Source of the DNA: an uncultured Lachnospiraceae bacterium
GTDB taxonomy: Bacteria > Bacillota > Clostridia > Lachnospirales > Lachnospiraceae
Assembly (NCBI GenBank): GCA_902780385.1
Contig: CACZFF010000003.1
Location: 28,377 to 92,376, forward strand
DNA length: 64,000 nt
Direction: 5' to 3'
The notes under the pieces are model-generated. The model was given only the letters and a program-made list of their open reading frames with translations. It ran no database searches and had not been told where the DNA came from. Made by a program: the position numbers and the translations under genes. Shown in pieces: positions 49,263 through 51,995 of this stretch; the first letter of the stretch is position 1, and every line of letters starts with the position of its first letter.

Positions 49263-50609
49263 TCAGACAATATGACCTTTTTCTTCGATCACGTCAATGA
49301 CGGAATCGACGAGTTTTTCACAAGTCTCATCGGATCCTGCCTCGACCATGACACGGATGACAGGCTCTGTGCCGCTCTCGCGCACAAGGATGCGTCCGTC
49401 CTCGCCCAGTTCATCAGCCACCTTCTGCACCTGAGCCTGGACATCAGGATCGTTCTGTGCGTCGGGTTTGGATTTGACGCGGACGTTCTTGAGCACCTGG
49501 GGATAGAATACGACCGGTGCCGCCAGTTCACTTAAGGGTTTGCCCTTGGCCAGCATGACTTCCATCATCTTGAGGGAGGTCAGGATGCCGTCGCCGGTGG
49601 TGGCATACTTGGTGAAAATGATATGGCCGCTCTGCTCACCGCCGATGCGGTGGCCGTTCTGAACCATATTCTCATAGACATACTTGTCGCCGACTTTGGT
49701 CTTCTCGTAATTGATGCCGACCTTGTCGAAAGCCTTGTAGAGTCCGAAGTTGCTCATGACTGTGGTCACGACCGTGTTGTTGAGCAGCTTGTCGCGCTCC
49801 TTCATATACAGGCCGTAGATATAGAGGATGTGGTCGCCGGTGACGACGTTGCCCTTTTCATCGACACACAGGCAGCGGTCTGCATCGCCGTCGTAGGCAA
49901 AACCGACATTGAGGCCGTTATCGACCACAAATTTCTGCAGATGTTCGATGTGGGTACTGCCGCAGTCCGTGTTGATGTTGTATCCGTCCGGCTCTGCGTT
50001 GATGACGTAGGTTCTCGCGCCGAGAGCATCAAAGACACCCTTTGCGATGGACCATGCCGCGCCGTTTGCGACATCAAGACCAACACGCATGTTCTTGAAG
50101 CTGAACTTGGACATGGAAATAAGATAGCCGATGTAACGGTTGCGGCCGGCTACATAGTCCACGGTGCGGCCGATCTCGTGACCGCAGGCCACAGGGATCT
50201 CCAGCTTTCCGTCAATATATTCCTCGACGCGGAGGATGGTCTCCTCGTCCATCTTCTCGCCGTTGCTGTTGAGAAGCTTGATGCCGTTGTCATAATAAGG
50301 ATTGTGGGATGCGGAGATCATAATACCGCAGTCAAAATCATCGACACGTGTGATATAGGCCACGGAAGGGGTGGTCGTGACATGCATGATGTAGGCATCC
50401 GCACCGGAAGCCATCAGGCCTGTGCACAGAGCATACTCGAACATATAGCTGCTGCGTCTGGTATCCTTGCCGATGACAACTTTTGCCTTTTTATCGAGAC
50501 GCGTGCCGTAATACCAGCCCAGAAAGCGGCCGATCTTAATGGCGTGCTCATAATTGAGTACCTTGTTGGCTTCTCCGCGGAAGCCGTCTGTTCCAAAATA
50601 TTTACCCAT
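49263..50609 (-). CDS. glmM: Phosphoglucosamine mutase
   Basis: A 448-residue alpha-D-phosphohexomutase converting GlcN6P to GlcN1P, the step after GlmS toward UDP-GlcNAc. It begins MGKYFGTDGFRGEAN. The phosphoserine is in GIMISASHNPYYDNG near residue 100, the metal loop is AYDGDADRC near 240, and the sugar-binding loop is GGEQSGHII near 325; RESGTEPVIRVMVE closes the phosphate site. I use ATG 50609, since the upstream extension lacks a family N-terminus; GGAG is 11 nt away. It follows nagB on the same strand, separated by a strong terminator, so its promoter is unclear. Confidence 0.95.
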   Translation of the reverse strand: MGKYFGTDGFRGEANKVLNYEHAIKIGRFLGWYYGTRLDKKAKVVIGKDTRRSSYMFEYALCTGLMASGADAYIMHVTTTPSVAYITRVDDFDCGIMISASHNPYYDNGIKLLNSNGEKMDEETILRVEEYIDGKLEIPVACGHEIGRTVDYVAGRNRYIGYLISMSKFSFKNMRVGLDVANGAAWSIAKGVFDALGARTYVINAEPDGYNINTDCGSTHIEHLQKFVVDNGLNVGFAYDGDADRCLCVDEKGNVVTGDHILYIYGLYMKERDKLLNNTVVTTVMSNFGLYKAFDKVGINYEKTKVGDKYVYENMVQNGHRIGGEQSGHIIFTKYATTGDGILTSLKMMEVMLAKGKPLSELAAPVVFYPQVLKNVRVKSKPDAQNDPDVQAQVQKVADELGEDGRILVRESGTEPVIRVMVEAGSDETCEKLVDSVIDVIEEKGHIV

Positions 50610-50659
50610 AAAAAATATTTCTCCTGGCAGCATATGCCATTTAATCATAAAAAACTGTA

Positions 50660-50698
50660 CACAGACGCGGACTGCCCTGAAGGATGACCGCGTCTGTG
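50660..50698 (-). terminator. Terminator of nagB
   Basis: CACAGACGCGG / CCGCGTCTGTG (11 bp perfect, 17-nt loop) followed by TACAGTTTTTT on the minus strand, between nagB and glmM. Confidence 0.85.
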
Positions 50699-50773
50699 CC
50701 TTTTGTTAAATGGTGAAAACTTTGCCGTCAGACAGGTATGCTTAAATCATTAAGTCTTTCTGTCCCGTTTCAA

Positions 50774-51562
50774 TTACAGTCTCTGACCTTTTTCAAGATC
50801 GAGGAAATACTTGTAGCTGTCGACCTTCAGCTCGCCGCAGGCAGGCTCATCGCAGGCGATGATGGCGTTTTTATGCATCTGCAGGGCACTGCAGGTAACC
50901 TTGGCGCTGACAGGTCCCTCAACAGTTGCTGCAAGAGCAGCAGCCTTGTTGTGGCCGTTGATGACAAGCAGGACTTCCCTTGCATCCGTGACAGTCGCGA
51001 CACCGACAGAAAGAGCCTTCTCGGGAGTCTTGTTCACATCGTTGTCGAAGAAACGGGAGTTGACAATGCGGGTATCAGTTGTCAGAACGCGGACACCGGT
51101 CCTGGAAGTCAGAGATGTGTAGGGCTCATTGAAGGCAATGTGACCGTCCTGGCCGATGCCGCCGAGGAAGAGATCGATGCCGCCGATAGCAGCGATCTTA
51201 GCTTCGTACTGAGCGCACTCTTCTTCGGGATCCTCGCACATACCGTTGAGGATATTGACGTTCTCAGCGGGAATGTCAACGTGATCGAACAGATAGTAGT
51301 GCATGAAATACCAGTAGCTCTGGTCGTGCTCGCGGGGCAGGCCGAGATACTCGTCCATATTAAAGGTCACGACATTTTTAAAAGAAAGCTCGCCGGCCTT
51401 ATATTTTTTGACCAGCTCGTTATATACACCAATAGGAGAAGATCCGGTTGCGAGACCGAGAACAAAAGGCCTTTCCTCTTTGTGGCCATTGATCTTTGCT
51501 GCAATGTAATCAGCGGCCCATTTGCTCATCTTATCGTAATTTTCCTGTATAACTACTCTCAT
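50774..51562 (-). CDS. nagB: Glucosamine-6-phosphate deaminase
   Basis: A 262-residue enzyme interconverting GlcN6P with fructose-6-phosphate and ammonia. FVLGLATGSSPIGVYNEL near residue 35, FNMDEYLGL with the catalytic Asp near 70, and LFLGGIGQDGHIAFNEP near 130-146 (including the active His and Glu pair) are intact. The C-terminus carries SALQMHKNAIIACDEPA. No nagA or transporter gene is nearby. It has a glmS-type ribozyme in its leader and a terminator of its own, so it is a monocistronic, GlcN6P-responsive gene. The reaction is reversible, so it might work in the synthetic direction when ammonia is high. Confidence 0.95.
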   Translation of the reverse strand: MRVVIQENYDKMSKWAADYIAAKINGHKEERPFVLGLATGSSPIGVYNELVKKYKAGELSFKNVVTFNMDEYLGLPREHDQSYWYFMHYYLFDHVDIPAENVNILNGMCEDPEEECAQYEAKIAAIGGIDLFLGGIGQDGHIAFNEPYTSLTSRTGVRVLTTDTRIVNSRFFDNDVNKTPEKALSVGVATVTDAREVLLVINGHNKAAALAATVEGPVSAKVTCSALQMHKNAIIACDEPACGELKVDSYKYFLDLEKGQRL

Positions 51563-51664
51563 TATTTACTCCTTCAATAATGATCACTTTAATAATATCT
51601 CTAATCTCTCAGTTACAATCAGCAAAAGTGTGTCGGGAGAACCTTTGTTACAGTTTTCATTCTG

Positions 51665-51793
51665 CTTTTTGTGTTCTCTCTGTCGGTCCACACCGGGACT
51701 GCAGCAACTCATGCAGTATATTGACCGTGGCAGCATCCGCCGAATCTTTCGATCACTGCCATTCCTCGTCAGCCTGTTAAGGCCCTGGCGCTA
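51665..51793 (-). ncRNA. glmS self-cleaving ribozyme/riboswitch, upstream of nagB
   Basis: Read on the minus strand, AGCGCC (51792-51787) holds the cleavage site, between A51792 and G51791. Next come P1-like AGGGCCT-TAAC-AGGCT, the conserved GACGAGG, a GGCAG/CTGCC stem, ATCGAA, TTCGGCGGATGC, then CACGG, a CTGCA/TGCAG hairpin, CGGT-GTGG-ACCG, and the ACAGAGAGAACAC tail resembling AAAGAGAAATCAC of the Bacillus ribozyme. These are the core elements of the GlcN6P-dependent ribozyme. It ends about 100 nt before the nagB ATG. The gap 51563-51995 has no protein gene. Extents are approximate. Confidence 0.9.
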
Positions 51794-51929
51794 ATAGCTC
51801 CCTGCTCCCTCCTCTCAACAGGGAAATATTTTACTGTAAGATGTAATAAAGCATATTTATATCCTTATCGCATCTTCCATACTCCTCCCCGGACAGTGCT
51901 TATGGTCCGGAGTGGGGTACAGCCTTTAT

Positions 51930-51959
51930 ACTATATAGCAGTAAATCCACTTTTGTCAA
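51930..51959 (-). promoter_or_regulatory. Promoter of the ribozyme-nagB transcript
   Basis: Perfect -35 TTGACA (51959-51954) with TATATA at 16 nt or TATAGT at 18 nt. The start site would be near 51924, giving a leader of about 360 nt. Between it and the ribozyme lie a CTCCGGAC/GTCCGG hairpin and a CCCTG/CAGGG hairpin. Confidence 0.65.
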
Positions 51960-51995
51960 GAATACATGCAGCCGCAGACAGCAGCAAAAACAGGG

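What the first reader, a model, noticed from the sequence alone, without database searches (positions are those of the whole stretch)
51665..51962. glmS ribozyme placed ahead of nagB instead of glmS
The minus strand between 51793 and 51665 carries the conserved glmS ribozyme core (AGCGCC cleavage site, GACGAGG, ATCGAA, TTCGGCGGATGC, 3' AGAGAACAC) behind a TTGACA promoter. The first gene downstream is nagB, which ends in its own terminator. The canonical ribozyme represses glmS when GlcN6P is high. Repressing a GlcN6P-consuming deaminase by its own substrate would be a wrong-sign loop. It becomes sensible if NagB works backwards here, making GlcN6P from fructose-6-phosphate and ammonia, as is plausible in ammonia-rich gut or rumen. 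Other possibilities are relocation without function, or use of the cleaved 5' fragment as an RNA. I know of no described nagB case but cannot search.
Basis: partly seen in the sequence, partly recalled or inferred. Interest (0 to 1): 0.88.

Follow-up and report, generated by a model that had tools for sequence, protein, structure and literature searches.

The report
glmS ribozyme moved onto nagB operon
A self-cutting RNA switch that normally shuts off the enzyme making the cell-wall sugar glucosamine-6-phosphate here sits, in many gut bacteria, in front of an enzyme usually thought to destroy that sugar, next to cell-wall synthesis genes, which suggests that the enzyme runs backwards as a second, ammonia-using way to make it.

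Summary
In detail: RF00234 matches 51803-51626 (minus) with 64.4 bits, the only match in the genome, and nagB follows. It is not a one-off. In the 24 ribozyme-bearing genomes of the genus (of 62) the next gene is nagB in 13, glmM or X-glmM in 10, glmS in 1; cases also occur in other genera and two other families. These ribozymes fall in one tree cluster (99/100) and keep their helices, five of six with compensatory changes and one invariant. The neighbourhood is a hexosamine-synthesis cluster: nagB, X (GlmU-type acetyltransferase half), glmM, closely spaced. NagB keeps its catalytic residues, but E. coli's GlcNAc6P-site arginine is glycine in 101 of 101 long-type rows (89 distinct sequences). 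Best reading: the ribozyme feedback-represses a biosynthetic cluster in which NagB makes GlcN6P from fructose-6-phosphate and ammonia beside GlmS. The direction of NagB is inferred, not shown. Against it: GlmS is kept in most genomes, this is usually the only nagB, nagA is common, and in the window glmS lies 5 kb downstream on the same strand. Unexpected: a covarying GGAGG-loop hairpin (P0) ends one base before the scissile A in 57 of 67 such leaders, against 14 of 58 glmS leaders.

The parts
51930..51959 (-). sigma-70-like promoter TTGACA-18 nt-TATAGT
   Evidence: 11 of 12; TTGACA aligned in 7 of 7 leaders compared
51793..51830 (-). P0 hairpin with GGAGG in its loop, its 3' arm ending one base before the scissile A(-1) at 51792
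   Evidence: -13.8 kcal/mol, z -2.6; same position in 57 of 67 nagB-cluster leaders, own arms pair better than swapped arms
51626..51803 (-). glmS ribozyme RF00234; cleavage expected between 51792 and 51791
   Evidence: 64.4 bits; compensatory changes among relatives
50774..51562 (-). nagB, glucosamine-6-phosphate deaminase family, 262 aa, long type
   Evidence: TIGR00502 361.7 bits; catalytic residues kept, S151T R158G K160R
50649..50699 (-). terminator-like hairpin and T6 behind nagB, not conserved in relatives
49263..50609 (-). glmM, phosphoglucosamine mutase (the open frame could also start at 50648)
   Evidence: TIGR01455 539.8 bits
48005..49171 (-). mutY
   Evidence: TIGR01084 305.3 bits
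46703..47734 (-). family 2 glycosyltransferase
   Evidence: PF00535
44765..46603 (-). glmS (open frame extends to 46627), no ribozyme of its own
   Evidence: TIGR01135 765 bits; single RF00234 match in the genome
51996..53051 (-). holA, upstream neighbour
   Evidence: TIGR01128 259 bits

Best explanation
A glmS ribozyme has been moved, probably once in the history of a group of rumen and gut Clostridia, from glmS to the head of a hexosamine-synthesis cluster (nagB, an acetyltransferase X, glmM, in varying order). NagB works mainly in the aminating direction, making GlcN6P from fructose-6-phosphate and ammonia beside the glutamine-dependent GlmS, so the loop has the normal negative sign. Shown here: the ribozyme's presence, conservation and covariation, its place ahead of the cluster in many genomes, the changed GlcNAc6P site of NagB. 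Inferred: cleavage by GlcN6P, mRNA decay, co-transcription, the direction of NagB, the activity of X and the direction of the move.
For: Ribozyme real and unique. Same genus: 24 of 62 genomes carry it; next gene nagB 13, glmM 8, X then glmM 2, glmS 1. Other genera of the family: 73 ribozymes, NagB or GlmM being the first of the six genes then searched in 12, with X standing before it in 7 of those 12. Order level: 4 of 61 further ribozymes, two of them in other families. 80 loci chosen by NagB similarity: 42 have the ribozyme core in the cluster, next gene nagB 34, X 6, glmM 2; nagB-X gap median 4 nt, X-glmM 18 nt. Whole-genome check on 50 of these: 26 have one RF00234 match, 25 of them at the nagB cluster. 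In two assemblies glmS ends just before the ribozyme, out of reach of leader cleavage. In the genus, of 20 genomes with a full-length NagB of at least 361 bits 19 have the ribozyme, of the other 42 five do (Fisher p 2e-10; genomes are related, so only indicative). Covariation on 28 ribozymes: 94.1% of cells paired, 16 of 29 pairs with changes on both sides, 0 of 500 shuffles, at most 7 in slid controls. NagB: D72, D141, H143, E148 kept with S151T, R158G, K160R in 101 of 101 long-type rows, 89 distinct sequences. One cluster in the ribozyme tree, 99/100. Precedents: Giardia NagB is anabolic and unaffected by GlcNAc6P (PMC4281351, passages); equilibrium constant about 0.2 M (PMC11593775, passages).
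Against: GlmS above its cut-off is present in 51 of 58 genomes examined that carry such a cluster or a near relative of this NagB, so NagB is rarely needed as sole GlcN6P source. Of 46 such genomes only 1 has a second NagB above the cut-off, and nagA above cut-off is found in 55 of 62 genus genomes, so the same NagB may have to serve GlcNAc breakdown. Akkermansia NagB, another gut enzyme, could not make GlcN6P under physiological conditions although it does at saturating ones (Km NH4 41 mM; PMC5902328, passages). Many clusters lack the ribozyme (24 of 50 genomes by RF00234; 38 of 80 loci by a core pattern that misses some). One of the 26 ribozyme genomes (G504) has it directly ahead of glmS. 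In the window the hairpin behind nagB may limit read-through to glmM. X is missing from the window's own cluster; a 56% relative lies elsewhere. One clustered ribozyme (G318) scores below the cut-off and its aligned row lacks the AGCGCC cleavage motif.
Confidence: 0.6

Rival explanations
1. Long-operon control of glmS: the ribozyme still serves glmS through a polycistron (ribozyme-glmM-nagB-glmS, or the window's ribozyme-nagB-glmM-mutY-GT-glmS); nagB is a passenger and stays a catabolic deaminase.
For: 8 genus genomes have ribozyme-glmM-nagB-glmS with 22-96 nt before glmS; in the window and 3 relatives (G034, G040, G044) glmS follows in the same-strand run.
Against: glmS is absent from the 13.9-19.1 kb read downstream of the ribozyme in G013, G015, G027 and G043 and lies on another contig. 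In 11 of 12 cases from other genera glmS is on another contig, which by itself does not prove distance, and in the twelfth it lies upstream of the ribozyme. In 7 of the 8 glmM-nagB-glmS genomes the gap before glmS folds to -26.5 to -34.4 kcal/mol and looks terminator-like by eye; the eighth gap is partly N.
Confidence: 0.2
2. Inverted switch: cleavage raises expression (or releases a useful 5' RNA carrying the P0 hairpin), so that high GlcN6P induces its consumers NagB and GlmM.
For: Both downstream enzymes consume GlcN6P in the textbook direction; the P0 hairpin abuts the cut and would cap the 3' end of the released leader.
Against: The known fate of the 5'-OH product is decay by RNase J1 (PMC3997798, passages); P0 is also formed in two leaders ahead of the window-type glmS; no CsrA found in the own genome to read a GGA loop.
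Confidence: 0.1
3. Catabolic NagB under a ribozyme with a wrong-sign or bistable loop: GlcN6P spares itself from breakdown when it is needed for wall synthesis.
For: A second NagB above cut-off in only 1 of 46 such genomes, and nagA above cut-off in 55 of 62 genus genomes.
Against: In the 19 ribozyme genomes of the genus with a full-length long NagB, the best nagA match is on another contig, whereas several short NagBs of the genus (G001, G011, G020, G022, G024, G032, G035) lie beside nagA; altered activator site; clustering with glmM and X.
Confidence: 0.07
4. Relic: a relocated ribozyme without function.
For: A degraded case exists (G318) and many clusters have none.
Against: Core columns nearly invariant; compensatory changes in five of six helices, the sixth invariant.
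Confidence: 0.03

Closest known systems
glmS ribozyme (RF00234), Bacillus subtilis type
   Same: Core, helices, cleavage site and presumed ligand.
   Different: Heads nagB, X or glmM instead of glmS, with a GGAGG-loop P0 hairpin against the cleavage site.
NagB, E. coli type glucosamine-6-phosphate deaminase
   Same: Length, sequence family, catalytic D72, D141, H143, E148.
   Different: S151T, R158G, K160R at the GlcNAc6P site; clusters with glmM and X, not nagA.
Giardia lamblia anabolic glucosamine-6-phosphate deaminase
   Same: Works like: proposed GlcN6P synthesis from fructose-6-phosphate and ammonia; GlcNAc6P residues partly lost (PMC4281351, passages).
   Different: A eukaryote, without a ribozyme as far as the passages tell; the passage lists four of the seven residues as kept, among them a serine and an arginine, so other residues are lost.
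GlmU-type sugar-1-phosphate acetyltransferase domain (gene X)
   Same: C-terminal left-handed helix half (TIGR03992 145 bits; PDB 5z09 and 2ggo).
   Different: No nucleotidyltransferase domain; below the family's curated cut-off.

Membership tests
glmS ribozyme RF00234 | covariance-model score above gathering | tested here: met
   64.4 bits, cut-off 37
glmS ribozyme RF00234 | conserved core and helices | tested here: met
glmS ribozyme RF00234 | GlcN6P-dependent self-cleavage | not testable with these tools
   needs in vitro cleavage
glmS ribozyme RF00234 | location directly ahead of glmS (usual, not obligatory) | tested here: not met
   nagB first; glmS 5 kb downstream
NagB deaminase (TIGR00502) | family score above cut-off, catalytic residues | tested here: met
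   361.7 bits; D72, D141, H143, E148 (residue roles recalled)
allosteric NagB (E. coli type) | GlcNAc6P-site residues S151, R158, K160 | tested here: not met
   T, G, R in the window and in 101 of 101 long-type rows; residue list from PMC4281351
anabolic NagB | net amination in the cell | not testable with these tools
   needs kinetics and genetics
bifunctional GlmU (gene X, not in the window cluster) | score above curated cut-off, both domains | tested here: not met
   145 of 292.1 bits, C-terminal half only

The most novel reading that the evidence does not exclude
The relocated ribozyme is a new leader architecture. The covarying GGAGG-loop P0 hairpin, locked against the scissile base, is a second functional part: it protects the uncut mRNA in the way of a STAB-SD element, or is released as an RNA on cutting, so that GlcN6P removes protection and exposes the 5'-OH end in one step. 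It controls an ammonia-dependent hexosamine route parallel to GlmS.
Probability: 0.15. Interest if true: 0.88.

Novelty: new variant of a known kind. Interest (0 to 1): 0.74.

Why it matters
The gene context of a ligand-specific ribozyme is informative about the direction of a reversible enzyme. If NagB is biosynthetic here, many rumen and gut Clostridia have two feeds into cell-wall hexosamines, one from glutamine and one from ammonia, and the annotation of nagB as catabolic is wrong for a whole group. It also changes which genes glmS-ribozyme-directed antibacterials would hit, and gives a natural case of a metabolite ribozyme changing its target gene.

Tried and rejected
Rejected: chance match (64.4 bits, covariation); the nagB-glmM terminator as a fixed feature (absent in G034); NagB as sole GlcN6P source throughout (GlmS above cut-off in 51 of 58, where G291 and the genome of L145 look like one assembly counted twice; 46 of 62 in the genus). 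In one search, three genomes had no glmS match at all (those of L128, L138 and L140, completeness not told) and four only low-scoring pieces; I do not build on this. G018 (97% complete, ribozyme-nagB) has no GlmS above cut-off, and the glycosyltransferase and the sugar transferase are adjacent where the window has glmS, but genus genomes without the ribozyme also lack it (G007, G019, G032, G035, G051), and G027 carries glmS elsewhere, so I do not use it as proof. CsrA reading of the GGA loop: no csrA found in the own genome (the control rings in 3 of 14).

Limits of the counts. The ribozyme tree has 85 columns; only the outer cluster is used, and the rooting and the direction of the move are inferred. 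Ribozyme cores for searches were found with regular expressions: 59 of about 116 canonical glmS ribozymes and 33 of 39 of the nagB, X or glmM context entered the tree (94 rows with two window-type glmS ones, 91 distinct), and one search missed at least L085 and L127, whose ribozymes one search found, so 42 of 80 is a lower bound. The pattern was narrower. The 80 loci were chosen by NagB, so a ribozyme on a distant glmS would not show; one search covered 50 of the 80 genomes. Seven of the 80 named genomes look the same as unnamed genus genomes (equal contig lengths), so counts overlap. One search counted 22 genus rows as long; one of them (L222) is the short type with H at 158, and the window and L220 are the same sequence. 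My first Fisher test (23 of 24 against 1 of 38) assigned fragments to the long type and passed over G006, whose broken match reaches position 259; it is replaced. A2 was built from 28 of the 35 ribozymes of the nagB, X or glmM context known then; G048 (near-copy) and G018, G025, G027, G040, G043, G059 (cut match ends or long loops) were left out; G114 and G318 were kept although cut or poorly aligned.

Literature: no paper on a nagB-linked ribozyme in searches (listings; passages of PMC3766115 and PMC9481103). The 2011 collection of glmS ribozymes and the 2012 chapter by McCown and colleagues are not held (one search was a guessed PMC id); I recall from memory only that the 2011 abstract says all but two of 453 lie in glmS mRNAs.

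Full report
What is there. The window carries one glmS ribozyme, RF00234, on the minus strand at 51803-51626, 64.4 bits against a cut-off of 37. It is the only one in the genome. The scissile bond lies between A 51792 and G 51791. A TTGACA-18-TATAGT site lies at 51959-51930, and TTGACA is aligned in 7 of 7 leaders compared. Gene order on the minus strand is holA, ribozyme, nagB, glmM, mutY, a family 2 glycosyltransferase, glmS, and a gene that I take for a sugar transferase from its sequence alone.

How general it is. RF00234 occurs in 24 of 62 genomes of the same genus. The next gene is nagB in 13 (window included), glmM in 8, X then glmM in 2, and glmS in 1. Of 73 ribozymes in other genera of the family, the first gene found of the six searched was glmS in 60, nagB in 10, glmM in 2, and none in 1 that ends at a contig edge. 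In 7 of the 12 nagB or glmM cases gene X stands in between. Of the 60 GlmS, 59 are 40-50% identical to the window's GlmS and one is 70%. At order level, 61 further ribozymes gave glmS 57, nagB 2 (in two other families) and X 2. 80 loci were chosen as the best relatives of this NagB among named genomes (mostly rumen and gut Clostridia by their titles). In 42 of them the ribozyme core lies in the cluster, followed by nagB 34 times, X 6 and glmM 2. A whole-genome search of 50 of these found one ribozyme in each of 26 and none in 24; 25 of the 26 lie ahead of the nagB cluster and one, G504, lies directly ahead of glmS. In the genus, 20 genomes have a full-length NagB of at least 361 bits and 19 of them carry the ribozyme; of the other 42, five do: four with NagB pieces 80-86% identical to the window's, or a NagB broken by N, and G020, whose ribozyme is on glmS (Fisher p 2e-10; related genomes are not independent).

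The cluster. Gene X (about 215 aa) is a left-handed beta-helix protein by its Pfam repeats. Its best NCBIfam match is the acetyltransferase half of archaeal-type GlmU (145 bits, below the cut-off of 292 for the two-domain protein). Its best solved relatives are 5z09 and 2ggo, a dual sugar-1-phosphate nucleotidylyltransferase. nagB, X and glmM occur in five of the six possible orders; median gaps are 4 nt (nagB-X), 11.5 nt (nagB-glmM) and 18 nt (X-glmM). Their products would be fructose-6-phosphate to GlcN6P, to GlcN1P, to GlcNAc1P, if NagB runs backwards. A terminator-like hairpin stands behind nagB in the window, and before glmS in 7 of the 8 ribozyme-glmM-nagB-glmS genomes by eye and fold energy, so ribozyme-led messages may stop before glmS. 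In two assemblies (L144; L145, apparently the same place as L165) glmS ends 116-150 nt before the ribozyme, where leader cleavage cannot reach it.

Is the ribozyme under selection in this context? On 28 ribozymes of the nagB, X or glmM context, 94.1% of cells are paired and 16 of 29 pairs show changes on both sides (shuffled mean 9.9, 0 of 500 as high; slid controls at most 7). Five of six helices have such pairs; the sixth never varies. Core columns are nearly invariant. One member, G318, is below the cut-off and its row lacks the cleavage motif. In a tree of 91 distinct ribozyme cores, 32 of the nagB-cluster type and three ahead of a window-type GlmS (70-73% identical; G020, G321, G813) form one cluster with 99/100 support, apart from the rest. 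This fits one relocation. The tree has few columns, about half of the canonical ribozymes known here did not fit the pattern used to pick them, and neither the root nor the order of events inside the cluster is resolved.

NagB. D72, D141, H143 and E148 (active-site roles recalled) are kept. Of seven E. coli residues reported to bind the activator GlcNAc6P (Tyr121, Asp141, Glu148, Ser151, Arg158, Lys160, Tyr254; PMC4281351, passage), S151, R158 and K160 are T, G and R in 101 of 101 long-type rows, 89 distinct sequences (one further row counted as long proved to be the short type). All four alignments printed (two of E. coli NagB, 7lqm, 5hj5) have R and K there. This argues that the enzyme is no longer switched on by GlcNAc breakdown, but loss of activation alone does not show direction. 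Seven short NagBs of the genus lie beside nagA, whereas in the 19 ribozyme genomes with a full-length long NagB the best nagA match is on another contig. The window genome's nagA is on contig 41; its neighbours were read but not identified by search.

Sign of the loop. In B. subtilis, GlcN6P-induced cleavage leaves a 5'-OH mRNA that RNase J1 destroys (PMC3997798, passages). Applied here, high GlcN6P lowers NagB and GlmM. This is sensible feedback if NagB makes GlcN6P and wrong-signed if it destroys it. The reaction is easily reversible (equilibrium constant about 0.2 M; PMC11593775, passages). Giardia uses its NagB anabolically. Akkermansia NagB aminates in vitro but not at physiological conditions (PMC5902328, passages). 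Against an obligate role, 51 of 58 genomes with such clusters or near relatives of this NagB have GlmS above cut-off, and only 1 of 46 has a second NagB above cut-off, so this NagB might serve both directions. I therefore put the biosynthetic reading at about 0.6.

An extra element. Immediately before the scissile A(-1) lies a hairpin, P0 (window 51830-51793), with GGAGG in its loop. Its 3'-most paired base is exactly one before A(-1) in 57 of 67 distinct nagB-cluster leaders, against 14 of 58 glmS leaders. Own arms pair at -12.7 kcal/mol on average against -7.3 when arms are swapped between sequences (65 distinct 3' arms; 39 of 65 beat at least 95% of swapped partners); for glmS leaders the figures are -3.4 and -3.0 (6 of 54). 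GGAGG occurs within 40 nt of the cut in 29 of 32 and 29 of 35 nagB-cluster leaders and in 17 of 58 glmS leaders, identical leaders counted once. P0 is not in the RF00234 structure line. It is also formed in two leaders ahead of the window-type glmS, so it belongs to this ribozyme cluster rather than to nagB. A STAB-SD-like protective role is a guess from the motif; STAB-SD was seen only as a reference title in PMC3997798. A CsrA site is unlikely, as no csrA was found in this genome.

Verdict. A genuine glmS ribozyme stands, in this group, ahead of a hexosamine cluster beginning with nagB, X or glmM. It is a new variant of a known kind. The biosynthetic direction of NagB is the best-supported but unproven mechanism.

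Noticed in passing
51830-51793 (minus) and leaders of related ribozymes: Covarying P0 hairpin with a GGAGG loop abutting the cleavage site, not part of the RF00234 structure line; at that position in 57 of 67 nagB-cluster leaders and 14 of 58 glmS leaders.
   Followed up: partly
51923-51791 (minus): The whole 5' leader is strongly structured, with two further hairpins (z -4.2); their sequence is not conserved among the leaders aligned.
   Followed up: partly
L200 (G318), 1521-1672: Probably decayed ribozyme ahead of nagB: 30.1 bits, cleavage motif lacking in the aligned row.
   Followed up: no
L074/L355 (G018): Glycosyltransferase and sugar transferase are adjacent where the window has glmS; no GlmS above cut-off found in this 97% complete genome.
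   Followed up: partly
G002, G019, G028, G032, G033, G047 nagB matches: Short nagB matches with one stop codon inside in six genus genomes; decay or assembly error.
   Followed up: no
G020 (L003), G321 (L180), G813 (L339): Ribozymes of the same tree cluster stand directly ahead of the window-type glmS, which may be a secondary move.
   Followed up: partly
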